Below are positions 37,558 through 52,628 of a stretch of 64,000 nucleotides of DNA, one piece after another. A model generated the notes under the pieces. It was given only the letters and a program-made list of their open reading frames with translations. It was not told the DNA's origin and made no database searches. The stretch is from Talaromyces rugulosus. Taxonomy: Eukaryota > Ascomycota > Eurotiomycetes > Eurotiales > Trichocomaceae. Position 1 is the stretch's first letter. Each line of letters opens with the position of its first letter. A program made the position numbers and the translations under genes. The DNA is taken from assembly GCF_013368755.1 (NCBI RefSeq), contig NC_049563.1, positions 4,774,001 through 4,838,000 on the forward strand, read 5' to 3'.

Positions 37558-38231
37558 GATGAATGATTCGTTCCTCCAATACAAAACACTCGCGTGAAAT
37601 ATGCACGCGAGCAGCTGATAGTAAATCACGTACCTTCAGCGAGCCCTGCCTAGAAACAAATTCCACGCCTGGGTTTGAAAAGTTGGATCGCAGCAGGTTT
37701 GGTCGAGAGAACGAGCAGAAGTGCTGGTAGAACAGCTGCTGAGTCGGTTCGCTGTCTTTGCTGGTTCTTCGAGTTCAAAGGCTAATTCCAGCTGGCTTTG
37801 AATATACAAGTTGGCGTAAGCACATTAATCGCGATCAGTTTTTGCAAGCGCATCGATCATCAAAGGTGGCGGAAATTGATGTCGAAGTGGATGGTTTACA
37901 TAATCACGCTAGCAACTAGGCTACACCCAAAATAGACTAGTGTGAGATGTATTAACCGGAACGGTTAGAAATGGAAGCATTGCCTTGATTGGTCCATGCT
38001 CTTATAGTTCTTTGTTATTTCATCCTGGGCGAATTCGGCTCTGAGACTTTACTTTATTAAACAAGAGATTTATTAATGCATGTATTTTTTATATTGGGAA
38101 CTAAATATCCCAGCCTTCAGCGTTCAGGGGCGCATAGTTTTTGCCATTGCAGGCTTTGAATCAGTATGTTAAAAAGGTAGAAGTGACTTGTATGATATTG
38201 GAAATGCTAATATTGCTGTGGAACATGGTTC
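37558..38231. other. Intergenic region left of the BVMO cluster
   Basis: A 674-bp spacer between two minus-strand genes, holding the promoter of the RNA-binding protein gene. No gene is recognised. Confidence 0.55.
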
Positions 38232-39984
38232 CTACTCTCTTGTACGGTTGCGATAGACCAGATTGTAATCTGAGATAATTTCCTCGGCCACACTCACGTC
38301 GGTCGGCCTGCCCAATTTCTCACGAATATATTCACCTTTCCACATAAGCCACAGCACAGGAGCAAAGGCGAGGACACTGCCGACGAGGGCAAACATCAAA
38401 AACGCAAATTGGTACCCAATTGACTCGCATAGTCGGACCGCATAAAAGGCAATAGTGCAACTAGTGCTTTGTCGGCAGAAATTAAAGAATTGAGCAACCT
38501 CGGAGCCTTCGACTCGGTACGAATCAATGCTATATGTGTAGCAAACGGTCGCCACGATCTGGATCCCAAAAATACCAAGGAACATTCCGGCTAGGGGACC
38601 AACCCAATGCGTTTTGTATTGCATTGTGAAGCCAAAAATCAGCAAGCCCGCCGGCACGAGAATCGCGCCTGTCCATAACCCTTTAAATCGTACTTCTGGA
38701 GGCGGATTGCTAACACCTAGTCGCTTAGACTCGCGTCGAATTATGTTATCAATAATTCTGCCCGCAAGCAACTATCATGATTACAATATGTTAGCAAATT
38801 TGGCACCATGTTAAGGCTAGTACGTGCGTAAATCTCACCTCTCCAGCAAGAGAGCCAATAGTCATAGTCCCCCCATACGCCAGACCGCTTTCGAAAGAGT
38901 TCCAGCCAAATCGCTGCTTCAAAATGATAGAGTAGGTGACAGCAGGGAAGATCGCCGCGAAGCAGTATTGCGAGGCATAGTACAGGCTAGGGAAGAGCAC
39001 AGAAGGATATAGCGCTATTCGGAAGGCCGGTATAATAACGTGCTTGGCCTTAAGACGGACACCGGGAAACGAGGTCCAAGGCCGAAGTAGCTGACGGTAC
39101 TTGGCTCGCGTGAGCTTGGGAGCATGAATGTTGGTGTCAGAGTAAGTTCTGGGCTTGTAGTACATGGTCTCAGGTAAAGCGACGACTAGGATGACTAAAG
39201 TGAAAAAATTCATGGCAGCAGTAATCCAAAAGACCCAGCGCCAGCCAAGAAACTTGACAACGGGCCCACCGAATAGAGCGGCCAGGTGGGAGCCGGATGT
39301 CAGCATGACGGTGAACAGACCAAGGGCTCGGCCGCGCTGGTGATAGAAAAATAGATCAGTCACAGTGGCTGGACCAAGAGCCATAGATACTGGGAAAAGT
39401 CCGTTTATAGCACGAATGCCAACCAGGGCACCAAAGCTATGAACAAATCCACAGCCCAGAGCAGTGACAAATCCAATAAACGTAGTGAGCAGATAGACGA
39501 AGCGACGACCGAATACATTGGCCAAGGGAATCCAAATGAAAGGACCCAAACCATTGAGAGCCACAGCAATTGTTCTAGAGTGTATTATTTCGTATTAAAT
39601 GGAATTCATGAAAACCAGTTTGGGTCAGATGGCTGCCATACGTTTGATAAGAGGCTTGGATTTCCGAGACTCCAAGATCTTCGGCGAGTGCAGAATACCC
39701 CGGGTTAATCGCAGCTGTATTCCATGTCCCCAGCTAGTGGTAAGTGATTCACGAATCAGCGAAAATTTGATTCCCTCCTTATTGAGGGCTTTACTCACAA
39801 ATGCAAGCCAGCATACTTGAATGAGTATCAGCACCTTGAGCTTCATGGGCCAGTTGAGAGGGTCACCCTCGTCCTCAGATGGACGGGGTACGAGATTGGC
39901 TCTGGGATTGTGGACTGTTGATTTGAGCTCGACATCTTCGACTTGCTCAAACATTTGACCATCCTGGTCAGTTTTGCTGGCCAT
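38232..39984 (-). CDS. MFS transporter (DHA1-like) of the BVMO cluster
   Basis: Four exons (39984-39799, 39733-39642, 39574-38839, 38771-38232) with introns of 65-67 bp give 517 aa. The N-terminal tail has EDEGDPLNWP, a mark of fungal DHA1 carriers. Then follow FLGTWNTAAINPGYSALAEDLGV, ALNGLGPFIWIPLANVFGRRFVY (motif A loop) and GALVGIRAINGLFPVSMALGPATVTDLFFYHQRGRALG. About 12 membrane helices can be traced, with a long central loop. It imports or exports a small organic molecule at the plasma membrane. It is tandem with the SDR gene (350-bp gap) and forms the left edge of the cluster. Its promoter has only weak versions of the cluster operator. Confidence 0.9.
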
Positions 39985-40334
39985 GATGGAGATGTCTTTT
40001 ATCAGGTGAATACACAATGTTTGGATAAGAACCTGCTAGACAATAACTCCTCAACTCGGAGAGCTTGGGCGTTTTAGTAGATTCTCGACATATGCTAACT
40101 GAGACTGGTTCTCTTTCGTGAAAAGGAGTCCGGGACCCAACCGGCACTCTCGCCGAGACTCCGGAGATGTGAGTCCATCTCCATTTTTTGCTCCACACCC
40201 CGGATTTGGCTGTCTGGGGAAATACATTGCCTTAATTCAAGTTTAGGGAAGTTACTTACTACGGATTCATCATTATTATTATTATTTCTTGGCATAGTAC
40301 GCTAGTTGGTAATTAACTAATAATTAAAATCTAT
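39985..40334. other. Promoter region of the cluster MFS gene
   Basis: A 350-bp region between MFS start and SDR stop. It contains two imperfect CGG-N10-triplet elements (40162-40177 ending CCA; 40201-40216 ending CTG) and an ATT microsatellite near 40268-40287. Confidence 0.45.
40201..40216 (+). promoter_or_regulatory. Weak CGG-N10 element in the MFS promoter
   Basis: The sequence CGGATTTGGCTGTCTG keeps the first CGG, A, pyrimidine, T and TGT of the operator found in the other cluster promoters, but it has three mismatches, including CTG for CCG. It lies 217 bp upstream of the MFS start. Confidence 0.3.
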
Positions 40335-41252
40335 TCATTGTTCAGAAACTAGCTGTGCACATGTTGCCCCTGCATCGACTGTAAGAATCGTGCCTGTAAT
40401 CCACCGTGCCTCATTTCCAGCGAGGAACCTGACAGTACCTGCACAATCCCACGCGTTTCCCTCTGTTTGAAGCAGGCTGCGCTTGCATCGAGCTTCCCTC
40501 ACCTCCGAAGCCATTCCTCCGCCAGCGAGGTACATCATCGGCGTATAGAGCATTCCTGTAGCAATTAAGAAGTCTGGTCAGCGGTGAAGAAGTGGTATGA
40601 TATGAGTATAAGGAATCAGATTACCGGGACAAACACAATTAACTCTAATTCCTTCGCGGCCATGCTGAGCGGCCATGGCCCGGGTCATATTCACTACAGC
40701 TCCTTTACTCGTTGGATAAAGGAGGCTCGGGGTTCCTCCCTGTAGTCCAGCAACCGATCCCATATTCACGATGCTTCCCCTAATATTTCCGTCTCCTGGC
40801 TCGTTCTTTCGCATGGCTGGAATTGCATATTTGGCCATGAGCATCATGCTCGTGACATTGACCTCGAGACTGCGCGCCCACTCAGCTACATCCACGTCCG
40901 GTGCTTGTCCACGAGCGCCCATGATTCCGACGTTGTTCACTAGAATGTCGAGCCGACTGAACCGTTCTATAGCTACCTCAACAATGCGCCGGCAGTCATC
41001 TTCGCTGCTAACGTCTCCATTAACAGCCGTCGCGGCTCCCTTTCCTTCGCCAATGATCATTTCCACCGTTCGTTGCGCGGCTGATAGCTCACGGTCCACG
41101 CATACAACAGATGCACCATCTTCGGCTAACAGGATCGCGATAGCTCTGCCGTTGCCAATCTCATCCCCGGCGCTGCCTGCTCCTGTAACGATGGCAACTT
41201 TACCAGATAGGCTGCGCGATGGGCGGAGTGGAACAGAGAGTGAAGAAGACAT
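40335..41252 (-). CDS. Short-chain dehydrogenase/reductase of the BVMO cluster
   Basis: Two exons (41252-40625, 40555-40335) with a 69-bp intron give 282 aa. It is a classical SDR. The dinucleotide motif is TGAGSAGDEIGNG (23-35), slightly longer than the usual TGxxxGxG. NNVG (106-109) follows, then catalytic Ser166 and YPTSK with Tyr179 and Lys183. VCVDRE after beta2 puts an acidic residue in position to favour NAD. The C-terminal TGTILTVDAGA is typical. In the cluster it is placed to interconvert an alcohol and the ketone on which a Baeyer-Villiger enzyme acts (inference). It is head-to-head with the hydrolase gene; the 183-bp shared promoter holds a perfect operator. Confidence 0.92.
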
Positions 41253-41346
41253 AATTCTAGTGTGTAAAACTTCAGTCTCGAATTGTCTATCTATCGTGGT
41301 TGTAGTCCTTAAGGTCTGGTTGCGTAGCGGGGTCGTGAGGGGGCAT

Positions 41347-41362
41347 CGGACATCAACGTCCG
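41347..41362 (-). promoter_or_regulatory. Cluster operator 1: CGG-N10-CCG in the SDR / hydrolase promoter
   Basis: Read on the minus strand: CGGACGTTGATGTCCG. The CGG/CCG triplets form an inverted repeat with 10-bp spacing, the geometry known for the yeast Put3 Zn2Cys6 factor. The inner TTGATGT is identical to operators 2 and 3. It lies 95 bp from the SDR start and 74 bp from the hydrolase start. Confidence 0.7.
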
Positions 41363-41435
41363 GGCTGTTGTGATAACTGAGATGCAATCTGAAGTATTCT
41401 TTACCTCGCACAAGCATCCTTCCACTCTAAGCACC

Positions 41436-42540
41436 ATGGATTTTTCTCGATATGGAGCCCCAAGCAAGGAATGGCTCGAATTCGTTGTTGAAAATCCGGC
41501 TGCCGCTCAAGATGGACTCAGCAATAATGATCACGCTACTCAACTTCGTGCCACTGTGAACTCGGCCCGAGGTACAGCATCTAAAAATATGATGAGTCAG
41601 TCTGGTTTAATCGACACAGTCGATATACAGACATTACCCATCCCGTCTCGAGGGAATCACTACATTCCCCTTCGTCGATACTCGTCTAGCGATACCCAAG
41701 AATCACGACGGGGTCTCGTATACTTTCATGGCGGCGGCTTTCTTTTCGGGTCGGAAGAGACCGATGACTATCTTTGCGCTACTATGGCTAACACTTTGGG
41801 TGTAATAGTCCTAAGCGTGATATATAGACATACGCCAGACTGGCAGCACCCTTCACAGCATGAAGACGCCCATGATGCGCTAGCATACATAAAAGCAAAC
41901 GCGTTAACGCTCGGAATCGATGAGGGAGTAGGAGTTCTAGGGATATCTGCCGGGGCAGGGCTTGCAGCGGCAACAACACTGCGCGACCTCGATATTCCAG
42001 AGGATAGATTTATCAGAGGCGTAGTACTCAGTATTCCATGGCTAATCCATGTGGATAATTACCCATTTGAGTTATTCGCAGAACCTCGCTTTTCATCGCA
42101 ACAGCAGTGCCGTGACGCACCTGTGATTCCCTGGGCTCGTTTGAAGATGTTTAGCGACCTGCTTCATGCAGACAAGAGTGATCCGCAGCTAAATGTAGCA
42201 CTTGCACCAAACGAGTCACTGCGCAGCTTTCCTCGTACCGCAATCTTAGTAGCAGGAATGGATCCGCTGAGGGACGATGGACTTGTTCTTGCCACAAAGC
42301 TACAAGCCCTTGGGTAAGTCTCTACCGTCAGAGAAATAAGACTTGCAGACTAAATCATTCAGTGTTCCTACCAGTGTTTCCGTATTCCCGGGCCTCCCTC
42401 ACGGCTTCAGGAGATGGGCTAGCCTTCCAGCCACCAGGTCTTTCGATTCCCGCATGCTGGAATGTATTCGATGGACGTTGGGGTTGGATGAGTGCCCAAA
42501 AGAGGACTTCGAAGATTGGTACGTGTATGGTGACGAATAA
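41436..42540 (+). CDS. Alpha/beta hydrolase (HSL-like esterase) of the BVMO cluster
   Basis: Exons 41436-42313 and 42363-42540 with a 49-bp intron give 351 aa. Active-site motifs are intact: HGGGF oxyanion hole (98-102), nucleophile Ser171 in GISAGAG, the Asp of AGMDPLRDDG and the His of GLPHGF after the splice. This is the hormone-sensitive-lipase branch of esterases. In the cluster it is a good candidate to open the ester or lactone made by the Baeyer-Villiger enzyme (inference). An in-frame ATG at 41382 would add 18 residues; the later ATG was chosen because it leaves more promoter between the two genes. Confidence 0.9.
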
Positions 42541-42780
42541 ATGAATCCTTCAATTTTATATTTGTGTAAATATGAACTTCAAACCTATGAGGCGAAGACA
42601 TAAAGACTCATAGGAAGTCAATACACCACTTATACGTTTCAATTTCAAGGTTACATATGTAACTCAAATAGTGAAGAAACCTTTCAAGTGTCCCCTTTTC
42701 TAACACAGTTCAAACAACAAAGCATTTTGTGTAAGAGTTTATAGAACTCGCTTTTTATAAATTCATTGATTCGGTCATTT

Positions 42781-43552
42781 CTATTCATCCAATGTAGGGA
42801 TTGGTGCCCGCCCGTATCGAAATTTCACCCCAAGAATGCTTGCCAGCCCTAGACAAAGACTTTGAAGTTCCTCTAGATCGTGCCTCGTAGCACCATTGAT
42901 AAGCATTCCCTTCATGTGATGCTGTAATTGATTCTGGCAATCCATTCCGTAAAGCGCCGAAACCATAGCATATCCCGTTGTCAAATCATCGATGATGCCG
43001 TCAAAGGAGAGGATGCGTCCATATAGCACTTCTAAAAGTTTTACTTCAGTTAGTAAATTATGATCTATTATCTTGGTTTTTGAATACATCCGTACCTCTC
43101 ACGACGAAGGCGTAGTCTGGACTAGCCCTCACTGACGCCTCCGGATCAAATGCTTTATTCCGAGAGTAGATTCGAGTCCAGAAAGCTTTCCCCCTCGTTC
43201 GAGCTACTTCCTCTGACTCCTTTGATCTTGGCGATTCCTCCTCTCGGAGATGTTCCGGGACGCAGTTAGCGAGAGTACGCATTGCGTTGCCCGTTCGTGC
43301 AGCGCCAACGATGCCGGTGGATTTGATTAGACCCTCACGGAGTCTGCGAACATGGGAGAAACAATCATCTGGAGACAGTTTAGAGAGTAAATTGGCGTCT
43401 AGATGGCCGTATACTTGAGGGATGACATCAGGGAAATTAAGTGAAGAGAGAGCAACCACCACACACATATACCACCTTAGGCGGTCTGCTGAGGGTAAAG
43501 AGAAAACTGGCTCCCAGAATGAGGCTGGTAGAGTTGGAGTTTCAACAGACAT
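42781..43552 (-). CDS. Carboxymuconolactone-decarboxylase/AhpD-like protein
   Basis: Two exons (43552-43096, 43031-42781) with a 64-bp intron give 235 aa. The C-terminal half has the CMD fold signature: YGMDCQNQLQHHMKGMLINGATRHDLEEL, where helices surround a conserved His and the NGAT turn. The paired CxxC of peroxidase-type AhpD is absent, so a redox role is less likely; a lyase, isomerase or decarboxylase role fits better. The N-terminal half starts with the LP--FW--FSLPSADRLRWYMCVVVAL segment common to fungal members. It is head-to-head with the ABM gene; the shared 237-bp promoter carries operator 4. Confidence 0.8.
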
Positions 43553-43667
43553 GATTTATGACTTTAGAGGTGTGATCTGTTAATTATTATGAAAGGGTTT
43601 TCCTCCGCACTTTCTGTATTTAGACCGTTAAACCCGGCATAATATGTGGAGTTTTGCGGGGTGGGAA

Positions 43668-43683
43668 TGGACATCATTTTCCG
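43668..43683 (-). promoter_or_regulatory. Cluster operator 4: CGG-N10-CCA in the CMD / ABM promoter
   Basis: Read on the minus strand: CGGAAAATGATGTCCA. One triplet is CCA instead of CCG, but the spacing and the inner TGATGTCC match operators 1-3. It lies 116 bp from the CMD start and 107 bp from the ABM start. Confidence 0.55.
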
Positions 43684-43789
43684 GCCCATCTCCGGAGGTC
43701 TCCGCACGTTGCTACAAATGCCCCCTGGGAATAACACGGATATTCTCCCGGTCATTCTTTCTTGAGAAATACTGAAATAATCGGTTGCC

Positions 43790-44600
43790 ATGTTTATCAT
43801 ATCACCCCTCTCCAATTGCGCGTCCGTCGCAAAACGTGATAGAGTATGTCAAGAAATTGGAAACCCAATATTCGGCGAAGCCACCGACTGACTAGCTACC
43901 TCATAGTTTATTGAATATCTCTCCAAAATTGCTCCAGTAACATACGGAAATGAACCCAAATGCCGTGCATATGCATGGTTCCGAAGTGCAGAGGACAACG
44001 AAACAGTGCCGCACCACTGGCTCCGTGGATTAGAAGTGTGAGTATAACTTCTTGTTATGCATTAAGTCCATTGTATTGATAGATTTCAGCTATGAAGATG
44101 TTGAATCAAATACTATTACTCACCGTGCGAGCGCCGAGTATAAAGCTTTCCGAGCAGCTGTCAGCGCTGAGAGACTTCTTGAGCGTCCGAGTGATCTCCG
44201 TTTCTGGAGACCCTCATCCATCGGCTTTCTTAAACGCAACAATGACGGCCAGGGATCCGACATATTCCAAGAAACACCTCCAAGTCTAGGTCTGCAGTAT
44301 ATTGTCGTTGATGAGCTAACCCCGCGGTCGACTTACAAGGACGCCGTCTTGGAGCAGTTGAGCCGGATGGCGAATGTAGCAGAACAAGATGAGCATGTCC
44401 TCAGTTTCTGGGTGCTGTATCGCGGAGAAGAAGAGCAAGACCAGGATATATTAGTATTTTCTAGATACAAGGACAAAAGCGCGTGGGTCCAGTTCTGCGG
44501 CCATGAGACTTCTTCGGCGTGGGGGGAAGTGCATGCATTGAGCGATGAGCAGCGGAGGACGACGTGGGTAGAGTCGGGAGTAGGTTTTGTGGGTAGGTAA
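43790..44600 (+). CDS. Dimeric alpha/beta-barrel protein (antibiotic biosynthesis monooxygenase-like)
   Basis: Three exons (43790-43843, 43907-44037, 44090-44600) with 63- and 52-bp introns give 231 aa. The splices produce FIEYLSKIAPVTYGNEPKCRAYAWFRSAEDNETVPHHWLRGLEVYED, the first ferredoxin-like repeat of an ABM/dimeric barrel protein. The second repeat spans about residues 125-225 (QYIVVDELTPR..., LSFWVLYRGEEEQD). Such proteins act as cofactor-free monooxygenases, isomerases or stability factors in fungal pathways. The 18-codon first exon is supported by phase-0 joining and by a start in the shared promoter, but it is the least certain part of the model. Confidence 0.75.
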
Positions 44601-44999
44601 CTTAATATAGATAAATCTACTTTAATTGATATTGAGGTGTTGTGTTGATGAATCCAAAGTTAATATTTCCCCTAAGATCAAAATGTATTGGGATTCAACG
44701 TGATCAATTGATGTGGAATTTTGTCCAAAGTAGCCCTACTAGGCTTTCAACCCAAAATTCTCCTCATCTTTTCCTGACAGACTTATACCTGCGCGAGAGT
44801 ATTTGAATGTTTAGAATAGAAAATGAGGATGGGCAAATTTCTCGATATTGCCCTTTGGAAAGCCACCAGTTGGTATTTTAGCTAAAGAGGAGCTTAAAGT
44901 ATTGTTATTTTCGCTACATATTAACCATTGGCTTCAATGTTCCTTTAGAATGCGTATCTCTATATGTAATAAGCAACGCTGTCCTGATATATGTATTCT
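44601..44999. other. Convergent intergenic region
   Basis: A 399-bp spacer between the 3' ends of the ABM-like and cyclase genes. It is AT-rich; no gene or motif is seen. Confidence 0.55.
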
Positions 45000-46212
45000 T
45001 CACAAGATAGCAATCGCATTAGGCGGGGAGGCAACCGCTCCGGTATAATTCAACGGTGATGAGGTGAAGAAAAAGGACCAGCGTCCATTTTGGGCACATA
45101 ATTCAGCCAACACATCAAGGTCGAACAATTCTCCCAGAGGTGTGCCCCAACCAGCGAGCAAAATGGGGTGAAGATGCCATTCTTTCTCTGTAGGCGCTAT
45201 TTGAAGTTAGTAAGAATGAAGCAACCAAACGTGATCCCAATAAACCGGTTACACCTACGTCGGACTTCAAACCCAGGTGAGTCACTTACCACAGCCGCAA
45301 ACTGTTTCTGCCAAAGCCATTCAGTTGTTTCACGCGACTGACCTAGGCCGCACCATTCGCGCACGCTGGCGACTCTTTCTCTTCCTGCTTTATCTAGCTC
45401 TTTGTAGGCAGCAACGTATCCAGTGCGTAGGAATAAAACGTCTCCTGGGAGTAGATCAACGCCTTGTTCTTTAATCACGTTTAGAACGTTTTCGAGTGTG
45501 ATTGCGTGACCCGAAAAATGGTGTACATCAATACCATGACGCTTCGCGTACGACGCATAATCAATCAGAACACCACGGCCAGCGAGTCCTCGTGCTGACC
45601 AGCTCTGTAAGCCATTGATTGCGGTGCGGGCAGAGGCATGTATATCCGCTTGGGTGGTTCTATTGTTCATACGGTGAAATATAATTAGCCCCAACTGTGA
45701 TATAACATCTCTGGATTTTTCCATTACCCATTGTAAAACTTCTTGTCTTTTTGGTAAGCAAAATGACGTAAACTATCCCATTGCGAGCTGCCTTGGGTGT
45801 TGAAAGTGATCTATATTTTATTAGCGTTCGAGACTGTCTCCCGACCTGAACATGGAACGTACCACGTCGTCATTCACTACCAGTGGGTTTTTATCGATGA
45901 CCTTTTGTTCAAATCTGGCTCGTCCTAGCAATGGAGGGTTGAATAAGTCGAGAGGCAAGCTGAACAGTTATTCGCTGTTGGTTTCTGTTACAGTTTTATT
46001 TCTGAATATCGTACTCACTTTAGACCAACTCTCTCGCCTGTCTTGACTTCTTCCTTGATTGCTCTCTGTACGAGCTCATCGGTAAGATAATTTAGTGATC
46101 CCAGTGAACTTTCGGGTCCATCTCCCCATAGTCCCCAAGCGGAGTTTGGAGGATCGCCGTCGTGCAAAGGAAGTTCGTCAAAACGTGGTAAGACCTTGGG
46201 TTGAGGCACCAT
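45000..46212 (-). CDS. Metal-dependent cyclase/hydrolase (kynurenine-formamidase-like fold)
   Basis: Five exons (46212-46019, 45959-45863, 45810-45728, 45659-45259, 45196-45000) with introns of 52-68 bp give 323 aa. The order of conserved blocks is that of fungal 'putative cyclase' proteins: LPRFDELPL, GSLNYLTDELV, DDVITFNTQGSSQWDSLRHFAYQ (metal-site region with Trp-Asp and Arg-His), GRGVLIDYASYAKRHGI, DVLFLRTGYVAAY, AAVVSDSPGFE, then EKEWHLHPILLAGWGTPLGELFDLDVLA. Relatives hydrolyse cyclic amides or lactones or act in polyketide ring chemistry. Here it may act on a lactone or enol intermediate. It is head-to-head with the EthD-like gene, with operator 2 between them. Confidence 0.9.
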
Positions 46213-46630
46213 GATGAGCGTGGTTTCTCTGAAGATAGAATTAGCCACAACTATTCTCTTCTGATCCTTATTTTTCTCAAATAATCCATAGACCATTTGA
46301 TCATTAATTCATACTTTTTACCCCACCATAAACTGCCTATTCAAGCCGGATATTGATGTCCGGGTGGGACGGTCTTTTTCATCCGAGTTGAATACGTTCA
46401 TCAAAGCATTTCCGCTAAATAACACTGCAAAATGCAGGCACTTATTACTAAGGATATTCTAGGATCAAAGGCTCCACTAATGCAGTAGCACTTATATTAG
46501 AAATAGAGTCCTAGCTTACCGAGTATCATCCTGCAGTTTTAACGAGTGTTGTTTTCGATATCGCGAAATACAACAGTATCATTTGATATCCAAACCATAT
46601 TTGAACGGATCAAACTTTTAGGAGTAAACA
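46213..46630. other. Shared promoter of cyclase and EthD-like genes
   Basis: A 418-bp head-to-head region containing cluster operator 2 (46347-46362). It is otherwise AT-rich. Confidence 0.6.
46347..46362 (+). promoter_or_regulatory. Cluster operator 2: CGG-N10-CCG in the cyclase / EthD-like promoter
   Basis: The sequence CGGATATTGATGTCCG is a CGG/CCG inverted repeat with 10-bp spacing; the inner TTGATGT equals operators 1 and 3. It lies 135 bp from the cyclase start and 269 bp from the EthD-like start. Confidence 0.7.
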
Positions 46631-47254
46631 ATGGCTGTCCCTGGAATCCTCATGCGTCTTTCTGAGGGGCTTTCTTCTACCACACTTCCTCTTCCAGGTA
46701 TCGAGGCACTCTACACCCTTAGAGCAGACGATAACGAAAAGCCTCGAAACAATACAGTCTACTTCCTCAATGACATTTCGCCCCTTCTTTCTGCTAAAGA
46801 CCAATATGACGACGATTCAGCTACCAACAACGACGTGTCATGGATCATATGCTCTTTTATCAACGGAAGAGACATTTCTACCCCTAAGGATGGAGCGCCG
46901 CAGACAAGCCCCCACAAACTGCCAACACCAGCTGCCCTAGAGTCTGTTTTAGTTGTTAATGGGTCAACTCCACGACCAGACAAGGAAGCCGACTACCATG
47001 CGTGGTACGACCAGGAACACGGGGCCAAATTGACACAAGTCCCAGGCTGGACGGCAGCAAGGCGGTACGCGCACGTCAAGTCCTATGGCGCATCTGAGAC
47101 AGCAAGTTTCTATGGTTTGAACTTTTACGAGGAGGAAAACGGGCTGGGTGGACCAGAATGGAAAGCGGGTGTGACGGACTGGACGTTGCGAATCAGGAGT
47201 AATGCAGCTAAGCCGAATATCCGGAGAGTGTGGAAGGTTATGGCCACCCAATGA
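46631..47254 (+). CDS. EthD-type dimeric alpha/beta-barrel protein, 207 aa
   Basis: An intronless gene with two ferredoxin-like halves. The first (about residues 1-90) includes GILMRLSEGLSSTTLPLPGIEALYTLR. The second (about 115-205) has DYHAWYDQEHGAKLTQVPGWTAARRY, the D-x-x-x-WYD-EH---L--VPG signature of EthD/SnoaL-neighbour barrel proteins. Members occur in alkyl-ether and aromatic breakdown and in secondary metabolism, often as small cyclases, monooxygenases or accessory factors. It lies in the cluster head-to-head with the cyclase gene and is probably co-regulated with it. Confidence 0.8.
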   Translation: MAVPGILMRLSEGLSSTTLPLPGIEALYTLRADDNEKPRNNTVYFLNDISPLLSAKDQYDDDSATNNDVSWIICSFINGRDISTPKDGAPQTSPHKLPTPAALESVLVVNGSTPRPDKEADYHAWYDQEHGAKLTQVPGWTAARRYAHVKSYGASETASFYGLNFYEEENGLGGPEWKAGVTDWTLRIRSNAAKPNIRRVWKVMATQ

Positions 47255-47662
47255 TGGCGTAACTCTTTAATTTTCTTGTATGTCATTGTTTTTATTTCTT
47301 TGCATTAAAAAACACAAAAAGCTCAGTTATTTGCTATTCGGATTTTCAAATATTGCGGGTTTTCATATATTAACTAAGACTGGAGTACAAGAATGGTGTA
47401 AATCTATTGAAATGGAGCAGAGGTTGAGGCTGTAAGAGAGAGTAAAAAGTAAGTGATACAGTTTATCAATGCAGTGATATGAAATGAATTTATTTGACTC
47501 AGAAGCGAGATCTACAGTTGCAAAATAAATAACTATTATCATCAATCTGTAGATACCAATATCAATTGATATCAGTTATCAAGTTGGAAGCATAGTATAA
47601 TTAACACAAATTGAAAACTTTGCTGTCTACAAAAAGAGCTATGTACCTCTATCCCTGCCTAT
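47255..47662. other. Convergent intergenic region
   Basis: A 408-bp AT-rich spacer between the EthD-like and BVMO 3' ends. Nothing else is seen. Confidence 0.55.
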
Positions 47663-49642
47663 TCAATTATGAATTTCCGGGAGAACAAACAAACGCCAAT
47701 ATTCAGCAAAGTCCAATGTCTGAGTAGCTCCAGCGCTTCCTCCTTTGCTTTCTCTCTGGGTAAATCCATTTCCAAGATAAGCAAACCGGTTAGCCCTGGC
47801 TACCTCCATGCGGTCTATATGGAAGTCTTCCCAGCGCGGGTTCTTAATGGCCTCCATAAAATGAAATGAAGTGCCACCGTAGATGGCGACAACTGGTCCG
47901 TCGACAGTGCCGCGCTTGTACCAGCTTCGACAGCCACGCGTCCATACCGTTCGGTCCAAGTACTCCTGCATATGCTGGTTGTATTCCTCATTGGCATCTT
48001 TCCTCACTTCAAAGCTGCGAATCATCTCCGTCTGTAGCTTTTCTAGCCATTTATACACGTAAACAGCAGTAGCCTGGATTCCCAATACCAGCGACCCGTT
48101 GCTAATAGGGCTGTTTGGTCCGATGAAGCAGAAGTAATTGGGCATATCTGGAACCAGAAAACCAAAGTATGCCTTTGGTTGTTCAGTCTCCCACAATTGA
48201 CCCAAGTCAACTCCGTTGCGTCCAATTACTGGGAAGGATGGTCGGAACGAAGTGTCAAATCCGGTGGCACACACTATCACGTCGTATTCCTTCACCTCTC
48301 CCGATCGAGTCACAATGCCATTCTCAGTAACCCGTGCCACATCATCCCAGTTTAACTCGACGTTATCTTGCGTCAGAGCTTCTAGAAATCCTGGTCCTGG
48401 CGTCTGTCTCCGACAGCCAACAGGGAAGTCGGGTAAAAGATACTGCAAGGCCTTGCGCCCCTTAGGACTGTCACCAAGGCGTTCAGTCATGCTTGCACGG
48501 AATAGTTCCTGGGCCCGTTTCTGAACGTCGCTTTCGGCGATGGCACGCTTGAAGTTTTCGATCCGGCGATCCATAATTGCCACACGGTACTCACGGAGTA
48601 CTTCGGGATCCTTGAAAATTTCTAGAGTGCCTTCCGTGAAATTATACTCCGCATCCATATCCGGGTCCTTGGCTGTAGGCTCGTTGATTCCAGGTGCTGG
48701 TGATATCCATGTTTGTGTTCGAACGTACACGTCCATCGAATCAACAACCTTGGCCAGCTGTGGGACGATTTGAATTCCGGAAGAGCCAATTCCAATACTC
48801 GCCACCTTCTTCCCCGTGAAATCATAGTCCTGGTCCCACCGGGCGGAGTGAATTAGCTTTCCTTTGAAGGAGTGTAGACCCTCAATGTTTGGCCACTTCC
48901 AATTGCTGCGGGTAATGCAGTTATCAGTATACGTTCAATCGAGGCAGGGTGTGTTAACCAACTTGAGTACGCCACCAGCGTTGATAAATACATCGACATT
49001 ATCTGTGAAGACAGTGCCGTCTGCTTGTTGCACTTTGATGTCCCATTTACCATCATTTTCATTCCAGATAGCTGATTTAATAGTATGCTGATACTTGATG
49101 TATTTATTGCAGTCATACTTGTCAGCCACACTGTGCATATAATCATGGATTTGCTGAGAAGTTGCATAGTAGTTTGGCCACTCGGGATTGGCGGCAAAGC
49201 TGTATGCGTAGTTATGAGCTGGTATGTCACACTTGCAACCAGGGTATCTAACAAAAGATCTCAGGGTAAGCGATTATAAAATAGCAAAGATGCTGTCCAC
49301 TTTCAGTCTTGCTCACCTGTTTTCTAGCCATGTTCCCCCAAGATCTTCGTTCCGCTCATATAAGACTAGTTCTGCGTTTTTATCTTGCATGCTCTCACTG
49401 AATACGATGGCCATCATGAGTCCCGAGTAACCTGCTCCCATGCAGGCCACTCGTATTGGACGTCGGGTTCCAATTGGCTGTTCGATGATTTTGTAGGAAG
49501 GGTCCAGGTGAGGTGCAGAGTCTTTAGACCCCTCGTTGGTAAAGACTGAAGAGCCATTGCGGTTACCATTGGTTTGCACTTTTTCGTGGAGTTCTGCAAA
49601 AGCTGACTCAACCGGCGCAGTTGCAATTATGGAAGGTGCCAT
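47663..49642 (-). CDS. Baeyer-Villiger monooxygenase (class B flavoprotein)
   Basis: Three exons (49642-49317, 49247-48963, 48905-47663) with introns of 69 and 57 bp give 617 aa. The FAD Rossmann motif is GAGYSG (69-74). The BVMO fingerprint FKGKLIHSARWD (217-228) fits FxGxxxHxxxW[P/D] exactly. The second NADPH Rossmann motif is GIGSSG (242-247). LNNWKWPNIEGL appears only after the second intron is removed, which confirms the model. The long N-terminal extension (60 residues) and the overall size resemble phenylacetone-, steroid- and acetophenone-type enzymes. It inserts oxygen beside a ketone using FAD, NADPH and O2, giving an ester or lactone. It is head-to-head with the cluster activator, with operator 3 in between. 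Confidence 0.95.
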
Positions 49643-49965
49643 GGCGGAGACTCAGGTATGGCTGTTGGTGTTGGGCCGATTGTCTGAAACATAGCGGTAT
49701 AGCCATATTTTAACTGATATATACCCTTCAACTGTTTTTTGCTCACAGCATGGAAAAGCCAATGTCCGAGATGTGGAGAGGCGCCGGACTTTGATGTCCG
49801 GACAGCCCTAATAAAGCTAATCCACATTAGGTCTAGAATGTGGAGACCCCGCATCGTATTCGTCGCTCCTGCAGCGCTGCAGGGATTCAATGTTGGCAAT
49901 GCTCCTCCTAATCCATCGATCTCTAATGGCCGTCATTGCATCCTACCGACAATGAAGCTATTATC
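49643..49965. other. Shared promoter of BVMO and cluster activator
   Basis: A 323-bp head-to-head region with operator 3 near its centre, implying control of both the enzyme and its own regulator. Confidence 0.6.
49785..49800 (+). promoter_or_regulatory. Cluster operator 3: CGG-N10-CCG in the BVMO / activator promoter
   Basis: The sequence CGGACTTTGATGTCCG shares TTGATGT and the CGG/CCG triplets with operators 1 and 2. It lies 143 bp from the BVMO start and 166 bp from the activator start. Confidence 0.7.
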
Positions 49966-52628
49966 ATGACCACAAATCCGATCAGAGCAATCCAGAAGCA
50001 CGGCCGTGGGCCCCAAGTGTCTCGCTCTGGCCCAGGAGGCGGGACATGCAAAACATGCACGCCTTGTCGTCAGAAAAAAATCAAATGCGATGGCGGCCGG
50101 CCGCACTGTGGTGACTGCACTAGTAGAGGTCTCAGATGTGTATATCCACAGGATACCAGAAGAGAGCCCCGGCCGTCCAAGGCTCGTGTTCAAAGCCTTG
50201 AGGTCACGGTTGCAGCGATGCTAAAGCATATGAAAACATCAGGCATCGTTCCGGCTCATGTGCAGCTTGGAGACATATTACTTCCTCCCAATGAAAACGA
50301 GGGAAGCGATAACAGTAACGATTCATCTTTGGAAACGGATTCTCATGCTCTGAACCAGCTACCCCAACACGCAAGCCTCGGTCATCTTGCCTCAACGGCA
50401 GCTGTTGCAAGCCCGCTACCAACACCGTCTACTTCCGTGTCAGGGGCGAGCAGGAGGGGATTATCACCAAATTTTATTCCTCATCCACCCCCGGCAAATT
50501 TCGGCTTCACGGGGAACCTACAGGAGTTTCCAGTAGCTGAAGATCTGCAAATACACAATGGCGGCAGTCCCGGTTTACCTATGGAGGAAGCGAGCGATCC
50601 ACTGGATATGGGTTCCCAGGCACATCAAGAAACGAGTTTGGGGCCTAGTCCCACCAGGATACCCGCTATCTCTGAATATTCAGCACCCCAAGGCCAATCC
50701 AAGGCATCACCACTTGTAAATGCTACAGCTACTACTACTGGTGCCGAAGGAGGCTCTGGTATGTCCCCTTGTGAAGCGCGTGTCGCTGGTGCATTTCACG
50801 AACACGGGTGTGTTTCCTCGGTTCATGGTCTCGCTAGCATTATGAATCCCTCATCAAGAGCGCAACATAAAGAGAATATTTCCAAAATGACATGGAGGGG
50901 TGAAGCCGCTGTGGCAGCCTCCAAGTCTAGACTCATCAGCAACGCCGCACTCCAGCGACAACGCGAACCACGCATATTTCGCCAGCCGTCTAATATAGTT
51001 GATCTTGATGGCTGCGATCCAGAGCTAGCTAGGCATCTATTAGATCTTCATTTCAATCGACAACACTATGCCTACCTCATCTCTTACCGTCCGGCTATTA
51101 TTGAAAGTCTTGCTAATGGCGGTGGACCTTGGGTCAACAAGCTTTTACTCAATGCCATATACTACTCTAGCACTCTTTACAGTGACAGGCCATATCTACG
51201 ATCTGACCCAGATGATCTGAATAGCATTGGTGCTAGATTCTATCAACGATTCCGGCAGCTACTGTCCGATGAGATCGATAAGCCCAGCATTCCTACCGCC
51301 GCAGCTTTGCTGCTTACCAGTGCGACATTAGTCTCTCATGGCCGGTCAAGCGCAGGATGGAATCTTTCAGGGATGGCATATCGAATGATTATTGATATGG
51401 GGTGTCATCTCATGCTTGGGCCTGACTATCAGAGCATGTCCAGCCAGGACCATGATCAGCTCTTGCGGCGTGACTTGGAGCAAGAGATGCGTAAACGACT
51501 CTACTGGGGAGCATTCATCACCGATGCTACCCAGGCTCTATACCTCGGCCGCCCCTGCATGTTTGCTGCCGGAGAAGCGAGGGTTCCACTACGGTTTCTA
51601 GACACATTCGAAGAACTCGAAGAATGGGAGCCATATGTTGACCCTCAGTCCCCTGTCGAGCCACCACCATCGTATATGCCACAGCCTGCCCATGCTCTCT
51701 CAACATTTAGCTCTTTGGCTCGCCTTTTCCAAATATCAACACGGATCACCGAGCTTTACGGTATTCAAACTATCAAATGCAGCTCAGAGTATCTTCAAGA
51801 CAAGAAAATTAGCATTGAGAAATCCCTAGAGCATTGGAGTATCGCGCTGCCAGATCACCTAAGATTCGATCCGGGCAAACCATTCACGCCACCGCCCCAT
51901 CAAATAACACCCCAGTAAGTCTTATCTATAATTCTTCTCAACATCTAAAGTTCAATCCACCTAATATATAGCTTTATAGCACAACCTTTCACGCTCTGAC
52001 TATCCTTCTTCACCGTGCATATTTAAAAGAAGGCCACCTTCGCCGTCATTGTGACGAAGGGGATCGAGTACGAAGTGAGCAGGCGTGTATACACAGTGCC
52101 CTGGCAATCGAAAAGCTTGTTCGCTCGTACAAAAACGCTTTCACGCTTCGTCGTGCCCCATTCCTATTATCTTATGCTGTTTACTCTGCAGTTATTGTCA
52201 TCCTCCGTCAAGAGCAACATGACCGCGAGCAGTTTACCGAGGCTATTTCTTTTTTCTGGACCTGCCTAAGCGAGCTGCAGCATGGTTGTAACTTTGGCCT
52301 CGAAAAGCCGCTCAATATCCTTCGAAACATGGTACACGAGTTTCAGTTCAACATCCAAGAGGGCAGCATGGGAGGCAATGATATATCAGGACTGCTAGGT
52401 CTAGATGAAACTAGTCCACCCTCCAGGAGCCAGCAGCCCGGAGATAGGCCTGTCCTAAGCGCATTATTACCCGGGGAGGAGACTGATTATATGGGTACAA
52501 TTGATCAACAAGATTTACCTTTTAGCAACTCATCGCCAGGCTTTCTTGTGTCGTTGAACCAGCTCGAAAACGATATATCTGAAGATGCTCTATTTGGGTT
52601 ATTCGCACCCTCTCAAATGTTCCCATGA
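49966..52628 (+). CDS. Zn2Cys6 transcription activator of the BVMO cluster
   Basis: Exons 49966-51914 and 51980-52628 with a 65-bp intron give 865 aa. The zinc cluster is C31-x2-C34-x6-C41-x6-C48-x2-C51-x6-C58. It is followed by a linker and a likely coiled-coil dimerisation helix (KARVQSLEVTVAAMLKHM). The middle homology region begins near residue 355 (PELARHLLDLHFNRQHYAYLISYRPAII) and includes AYRMIIDMGCHLML and RKRLYWGAFITDATQALYLGRPCM. Such factors bind CGG triplets as dimers; linker and coiled coil set the spacing. Four nearby promoters have CGG-N10-CCG(A) sites, so this protein is the obvious candidate to bind them. The first in-frame ATG was used. Confidence 0.93.

What the first reader, a model, noticed from the sequence alone, without database searches (positions are those of the whole stretch)
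40201..49800. A conserved CGG-N10-CCG operator in four divergent promoters of one gene cluster
Read directly: CGGACGTTGATGTCCG (41347-41362, minus), CGGATATTGATGTCCG (46347-46362), CGGACTTTGATGTCCG (49785-49800) and CGGAAAATGATGTCCA (43668-43683, minus). All four share CGGA and TGATGTCC at the same spacing; three also share TTGATGT and the closing CCG. Each sits in a different head-to-head promoter, and together they cover all eight divergent genes. A weaker match (40201-40216) precedes the MFS gene. CGG inverted repeats with fixed spacing are the known target form of Zn2Cys6 dimers (10-bp spacing as for yeast Put3). The conserved inner bases suggest a distinct, cluster-specific site. The activator at 49966-52628 is the natural candidate, and operator 3 would give it autoregulation.
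Basis: partly seen in the sequence, partly recalled or inferred. Interest (0 to 1): 0.88.

Follow-up and report, generated by a model that had tools for sequence, protein, structure and literature searches.

The report
Shared operator of fungal gene cluster
Four two-way gene switches in one mould gene cluster carry the same short DNA signal, found almost nowhere else in its genome and kept in the matching cluster of a distant fungus, so it is very probably the landing site of the cluster's own regulator.

Summary
The degenerate 16-mer occurs 4 times in the window (0.01 expected) and 6 times in the 35.76 Mb genome; the strict form occurs 3 times, all in this cluster. An independent test came from a fungal contig filed under a bacterial MAG (L033). 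It carries 7 of the 9 genes (activator 51% identical). A matrix built from the window sites finds the motif in its four divergent promoters (sum 73.2; 0 of 2000 shuffles reach it, maximum 42.9; the ABM/CMD copy is weak). De novo word searches in either promoter set recover the same motif. The eight sites give YGGACATYRWNNWCCR: GGACAT in 8 of 8, full CGG-N10-CCG in only 6 of 8. The inner bases are thus a half-site, CGGACAT, facing a looser CCG. Best reading: a cluster-specific operator bound by the resident Zn2Cys6 activator (49966-52628), serving eight genes including its own. Binding is inferred, not shown. Not supported: the MFS site at 40201, and a specific Put3 analogy (Ppr1 and Gal4 match better). 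A well-supported new member of a known kind.

The parts
41347..41362 (+). Operator 1, CGGACATCAACGTCCG, in the SDR/hydrolase divergent promoter; 95 bp from the SDR ATG, 74 bp from the hydrolase ATG
43668..43683 (+). Operator 2, TGGACATCATTTTCCG, in the CMD-like/ABM divergent promoter (weakest window copy: TGG instead of CGG)
46347..46362 (-). Operator 3, CGGACATCAATATCCG, in the cyclase/DAB divergent promoter
49785..49800 (-). Operator 4, CGGACATCAAAGTCCG, in the BVMO/activator divergent promoter (would give autoregulation)
49762..49768 (-). Extra half-site CGGACAT beside operator 4; the orthologous L033 promoter also carries an extra CGGACAT (L033 9578-9584)
38232..39984 (-). MFS transporter (MFS_1), 4 exons; promoter lacks GGACAT
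40335..41252 (-). Short-chain dehydrogenase (SDR), 2 exons
41436..42540 (+). Alpha/beta hydrolase (Abhydrolase_3), 2 exons
42781..43552 (-). CMD-like protein (PF02627 only at E 0.057, below cut-off), 2 exons
43790..44600 (+). ABM-domain protein (PF03992), 3 exons
45000..46212 (-). Putative cyclase (PF04199), 5 exons
46631..47254 (+). DAB, a 207-aa protein with no Pfam or NCBIfam match at E up to 1
47663..49642 (-). Baeyer-Villiger-type flavin monooxygenase, 3 exons; nearest solved: cyclohexanone, steroid and phenylacetone monooxygenases
49966..52628 (+). Zn2Cys6 + Fungal_trans activator (865 aa, 2 exons), candidate binder

Best explanation
The motif is the operator of the cluster's own Zn2Cys6 activator. 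One copy sits in each of four divergent promoters, so one bound activator can switch on both flanking genes, eight in all, the activator gene included (positive feedback). The consensus is YGGACATYRWNNWCCR: one extended half-site (CGGACAT, then Y R W) and a minimal second half (CCG) ten bases from the first CGG. I infer that one subunit of a dimer reads CGGACAT in detail and the other anchors on CGG. SHOWN: sites, near-exclusive occurrence in the genome, placement, conservation in one orthologous cluster, activator domains, activator and enzymes side by side in both clusters. INFERRED: that this activator binds, that it activates rather than represses, the autoregulation, and induction by a pathway compound. 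The enzyme set (SDR, BVMO, alpha/beta hydrolase, cyclase, transporter) suggests breakdown of a cyclic or aromatic ketone.
For: Near-exclusive in the genome: 3 of 3 strict and 4 of 6 degenerate hits in the cluster. Of 56 genome sites (those within one mismatch of the refined pattern, plus one) scored with the eight-site matrix, the four are ranks 1, 2, 3 and 5; the matrix contains them, which favours them. Orthologous cluster in L033 (7 of 9 window proteins found by tblastn; SDR and MFS not): a matrix from the four window sites alone puts the best site of its four promoters at ranks 1, 2, 4 and 7 of 45,270 scored positions; sum 73.2 against shuffle maximum 42.9 (0 of 2000) and 0 of 2000 random L033 stretches (maximum 43.0). 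De novo word search in L033 alone gives the same word, 0 of 100 shuffles. Flanks outside the 16 bp do not resemble each other by eye. The activator's six cluster cysteines and K37 K38 are invariant in the 19 sequences I aligned (itself and 18 relatives picked from 120 listed); the KK pair aligns with Gal4 residues 17-18, and Gal4 Lys18 contacts CGG (passage in PMC5559640).
Against: No binding or expression data. Only one orthologous cluster could be read as DNA. The L033 ABM/CMD copy is weak (10 of 1000 shuffles match it). Five off-cluster genome sites score 20 or more, one of them (22.5) above operator 2 (21.3); two of the five are not clearly inside coding sequence (L038/L051 intergenic; L021 about 50 bp upstream of a likely ATG). 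The fully palindromic form CGGACATNNATGTCCG is not cluster-specific: within one mismatch 6 places, 3 here and 3 elsewhere. The activator's domain is nearer Ppr1 and Gal4 than Put3, so N10 spacing is not predicted from its sequence. Some relatives in the list carry no precomputed zinc-cluster domain, e.g. T. islandicus P0002, perhaps by gene-model error.
Confidence: 0.8

Rival explanations
1. The site is a real, conserved operator but is bound by another factor encoded elsewhere (for example a trans-acting Zn2Cys6 protein or a repressor), not by the activator at 49966-52628.
For: No binding data; the activator's closest solved relatives do not predict N10 spacing; genomes of this kind hold many Zn2Cys6 genes (general knowledge, not searched here).
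Against: Strict sites are confined to this cluster, as expected for a pathway-specific rather than a global factor. The activator's own promoter carries one of the two best sites (first with the eight-site matrix; second with the four-site matrix).
Confidence: 0.13
2. Recognition is essentially of one extended half-site (CGGACATYRW) by one zinc cluster, as for fission yeast Pho7 (its tgp1 site is TCGGACATTCAA), and the facing CCG matters little.
For: GGACAT 8 of 8 and Y R W behind it, against CGG-N10-CCG in 6 of 8. Extra lone CGGACAT in the BVMO/activator promoter of both fungi. Pho7 motif read in passages of PMC5559640.
Against: CC at fixed distance is 8 of 8 and CCG 7 of 8. The activator has a conserved stretch after the linker aligning with the corresponding part of Ppr1 and Gal4, and Pho7 itself is a poor match (E 0.42).
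Confidence: 0.15
3. Chance resemblance, or four promoters copied from one another.
For: CGG-N10-CCG alone is as common as chance.
Against: 0 of 200 and 0 of 100 shuffles in two separate promoter sets, 0 of 2000 in the cross-species test, and no similarity by eye in the flanks.
Confidence: 0.01

Closest known systems
Put3 / proline utilisation (yeast), CGG-N10-CCG
   Same: Inverted CGG triplets 10 bases apart in 6 of 8 sites; a Zn2Cys6 pathway activator
   Different: Here the inner bases ACAT-YRW are strongly conserved and asymmetric. The activator's domain profile matches Put3 at E 3e-5, against Ppr1 4e-10 and Gal4 1e-9. Put3 spacing is recalled.
Ppr1 / Gal4 DNA-binding domains
   Same: Zinc cluster, linker and following stretch align with a single one-residue gap
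   Different: Their sites have 6 and 11 bases between CGGs (recalled); here 10
Pho7 (fission yeast), TCG(G/C)(A/T)xxTTxAA; tgp1 site TCGGACATTCAA
   Same: A zinc cluster reading bases well beyond CGG, with the same stretch CGGACAT in its tgp1 site (passages of PMC5559640)
   Different: The pho1 site 2 and tgp1 sites hold a single CGG (passage); Pho7 is a distant sequence match
TerR of the terrein cluster, TCGGHHWYHCGGH
   Same: Cluster-encoded Zn2Cys6 regulator with its own extended motif in its cluster promoters, one of them bidirectional (abstract and section headings, PMC4360782)
   Different: Direct CGG repeat; biosynthetic cluster
hxn nicotinate cluster of Aspergillus nidulans
   Same: Co-induced fungal catabolic cluster with a resident regulator (start of abstract in the search listing only, PMC5746545)
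   Different: Regulator is Cys2His2

Membership tests
Zn2Cys6 (Gal4-type) transcription factors | CX2CX6CX6CX2CX6C cluster (PF00172) | tested here: met
   PF00172 E 1.9e-10, 41.1 bits over cut-off 21; the six cysteines invariant in the 19 aligned sequences, query included
Zn2Cys6 (Gal4-type) transcription factors | Fungal_trans middle region (PF04082) | tested here: met
   E 2.7e-21, residues 360-624
Zn2Cys6 (Gal4-type) transcription factors | Binds CGG-containing DNA | not testable with these tools
   KK pair of Gal4 retained; no binding assay
Put3-type operator | CGG and CCG exactly 10 bases apart | tested here: inconclusive
   6 of 8 sites; each of the other two has one changed base in one triplet
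Put3-type operator | Cognate protein of Put3 type | tested here: not met
   Ppr1 and Gal4 score better than Put3 with the domain profile
Cluster-specific operator of a resident regulator | Sites concentrated in the promoters of one cluster | tested here: met
   3 of 3 strict and 4 of 6 degenerate genome hits in the cluster
Cluster-specific operator of a resident regulator | Conserved in orthologous clusters | tested here: met
   4 of 4 divergent promoters of L033 (one weak), the only orthologous cluster readable as DNA
Cluster-specific operator of a resident regulator | Regulator needed for expression | not testable with these tools
   no expression data

The most novel reading that the evidence does not exclude
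The operator is strongly asymmetric: one zinc cluster reads a 7-10 bp half-site CGGACATYRW while the other only anchors on CCG. This code has been kept, together with activator and cluster, between a Talaromyces and a Helotiales-like fungus, defining a one-cluster regulon, unreported in my searches, in which a single dimer serves two genes at each of four divergent promoters.
Probability: 0.4. Interest if true: 0.5.

Novelty: new member of a known kind. Interest (0 to 1): 0.42.

Why it matters
Many fungal clusters have a resident Zn2Cys6 regulator with no known target sequence (general knowledge). Here the likely target is pinned down by sequence alone to 16 bp, conserved between two distant fungi and almost confined to one cluster, so binding, autoregulation and the substrate of the pathway can be tested directly. 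It also shows bases beyond CGG carrying specificity, which bears on how near-identical zinc clusters tell their sites apart.

Tried and rejected
Weak MFS operator at 40201: rejected. A second N10 pair at 46370 scores 5.1/3.4 with the motif: rejected. 37870-37885 (TCGACATCAATTTCCG, score 17.7; about 0.13 expected per window, both strands) lies between the MFS 3' end and a neighbouring gene: left open, not counted as a site. A fully palindromic consensus CGGACATNNATGTCCG: not enriched in the genome at two mismatches (88 per strand, control 96) and within one mismatch 3 of 6 places are elsewhere, so dropped in favour of the asymmetric form; in G001, the mixed record of L033, it gave 24 per strand against control 11, with 2 of the 3 places within one mismatch in the cluster. 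The refined pattern at one mismatch is also at background (36+24 against 32+36). Regulon outside the cluster: I looked at the surroundings of 15 distinct off-cluster genome places (L001, L006-L011, L012 = L042, L021, L038 = L051, L039, L043, L044, L049, L050). 14 of 15 lie in an open frame of at least 90 codons (not proven genes; some lie in frames on both strands; the L012 place may fall at the end of an exon); of these, L021 lies upstream of the likely ATG. L038/L051 is intergenic. L045 (G001) reads as bacterial by eye. Spacing prediction from the linker: inconclusive. Viral contigs gave no relative. Literature: searches returned nothing; (CGGACAT anywhere) was swamped by primers; some searches gave only general precedents. 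In those eight searches I found no paper on this cluster or motif. Enzyme substrate: not settled.
Full report
What was claimed and whether it is there. The four sites are present at the stated coordinates. The degenerate pattern CGGANNWTGATGTCCR is found 4 times in the window against 0.01 expected, and 6 times in the whole 35.76 Mb genome, 4 of them here. The strict pattern occurs 3 times in the genome without mismatch, all here; at up to two mismatches the genome is close to its backward control (117+117 against 97+111). CGG-N10-CCG by itself is not enriched (7 seen, 9.4 expected).

Surroundings. Spliced models, made by eye and without RNA evidence, give nine genes: MFS, SDR, alpha/beta hydrolase, a CMD-like protein (PF02627 only at E 0.057), an ABM protein, a PF04199 cyclase, DAB (no family), a Baeyer-Villiger-type monooxygenase whose closest solved relatives are cyclohexanone, steroid and phenylacetone monooxygenases, and a Zn2Cys6 + Fungal_trans activator. 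Eight of them form four head-to-head pairs, and each of the four intergenic stretches (183 to 418 bp) holds one site. The host is a Talaromyces by its nearest named activators (T. proteolyticus 80%; T. islandicus 87% over 90% of the query). That six contigs and 35.8 Mb fit T. rugulosus is recalled, not tested. The cluster is flanked by what read as an RNA-binding protein gene and a 6-phosphogluconate dehydrogenase gene (my reading; no family search was run on them).

The independent test. Relatives of this genome are not held for DNA search. The scan of genome contigs with the activator alignment returned one locus, L033, from contig NYXK01000081.1, titled a Deltaproteobacteria MAG. It is fungal: its genes are split as by introns, and the activator piece held for it (P0080) is 81% identical over 527 residues to that of Oculimacula yallundae, best of 17 named activators compared, i.e. 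Helotiales-like. It holds orthologues of the activator (51%), BVMO (77%), cyclase, DAB, ABM, CMD-like protein and hydrolase, 7 of the 9 window proteins. The SDR and the window's MFS gave no match there; a different MFS is divergent to the hydrolase. A matrix made from the four window sites only was run on L033. The best site in each of the four divergent promoters ranks 2 (hydrolase/MFS), 1 (BVMO/activator), 4 (DAB/cyclase) and 7 (ABM/CMD) of 45,270 scored positions; ranks 3 and 5 are the opposite strands of two of them. The sum, 73.2, is reached by 0 of 2000 shuffled promoter sets (maximum 42.9) and by 0 of 2000 sets of stretches taken elsewhere in L033 (maximum 43.0). Singly, three promoters are matched by 0 of 1000 shuffles and ABM/CMD by 10 of 1000. 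A word search in L033 alone returns CGGACATTGAAGTCCG, 0 of 100 shuffles.

What the eight sites say. Columns 2-7 (GGACAT) and 14-15 (CC) are identical in 8 of 8, column 1 is C in 7 of 8, columns 8, 9 and 10 are Y, R and W in 8 of 8, and 16 is G in 7 of 8. Full CGG-N10-CCG holds in 6 of 8. Both BVMO/activator promoters also carry one lone CGGACAT next to the full site (window 49762-49768, L033 9578-9584). The flanks do not resemble each other by eye, which argues against copied promoters.

Specificity in the genome. The refined pattern CGGACATYRWNNTCCG has 4 exact hits, 3 in the cluster; at one mismatch it is at background (36+24 against control 32+36). Its fully palindromic cousin is not specific: within one mismatch 6 places, 3 of them elsewhere. 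Of 56 sites scored with the eight-site matrix (those plus one), the cluster's are ranks 1, 2, 3 and 5; rank 4 (C3:2573296) lies in a 395-codon frame. That matrix includes the window sites, so this ranking favours them, and the 56 are not a scan of every position. Of 15 off-cluster places looked at, 14 lie in open frames of at least 90 codons; L038/L051 does not, and L021, though in such a frame, is upstream of its likely ATG. These two remain possible outside targets.

Who binds. The activator is the best candidate because it is in the cluster, its own promoter has one of the two best sites, and it is kept with the cluster. Both lists are cut at 120 rows and clustered at 90% identity, so the other 24 are not evidence of absence; Talaromyces proteolyticus, for one, shows no such match. 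Locus tags are consecutive in P. longicatenatum, A. ustus, O. yallundae and C. chaetospira, but seven apart in Diaporthe batatas. A profile of 15 DNA-binding stretches matches Ppr1 (E 4e-10) and Gal4 (1e-9) best, Put3 at 3e-5. The KK pair that aligns with Gal4 residues 17-18 is invariant in the 19 aligned sequences, which I had picked from 120 listed.

Mechanism. Most likely a dimer of the activator sits on each operator, one zinc cluster reading CGGACAT in detail and the other anchoring on CCG, and drives transcription both ways; on the BVMO/activator promoter this would be positive feedback. Extended reading beyond CGG has precedents: Pho7, whose tgp1 site is TCGGACATTCAA (passages, PMC5559640), and TerR, TCGGHHWYHCGGH (abstract, PMC4360782). 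Binding, activation, feedback and the inducer are inferences.

Verdict. It is a clean new example of a known kind, a cluster-specific operator of a resident Zn2Cys6 regulator, with an unusually informative half-site.

Noticed in passing
L033 / L046-L048 (NYXK01000081.1, 69,289 bases): A contig filed under a Deltaproteobacteria MAG in the genome collection is fungal (split genes, activator 81% identical to Oculimacula yallundae). Another contig of the same record (L045) reads as bacterial by eye.
   Followed up: partly
L042 4773-4788 (G000:C6:2882272-2882287): CGGACATCAATGTCAG, one base from a perfect palindrome, lies inside an SDR frame of a second SDR + BVMO (38% identical) + hydrolase cluster in the same genome. 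Roughly nine such scores are expected per genome, extrapolating one hit in 60 window shuffles, so probably chance.
   Followed up: partly
window 37870-37885: TCGACATCAATTTCCG scores 17.7, between the MFS 3' end and the neighbouring gene; about 0.13 expected per window.
   Followed up: partly
window 40159 and 43690: CTCCGGAG palindromes in the MFS and CMD/ABM promoters, plus several CreA-like SYGGRG boxes (consensus recalled) in the cluster promoters; not tested against chance.
   Followed up: no
P0236: Aspergillus cavernicola has a protein with both flavin-monooxygenase (PF00743) and ABM (PF03992) domains, possibly a fusion of two cluster genes or a gene-model error.
   Followed up: no
L033 4733 onwards: In the orthologous cluster a different transporter (MFS_1, 34.2 bits on a partial frame) replaces the SDR opposite the hydrolase, yet the operator is kept between them.
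   Followed up: partly
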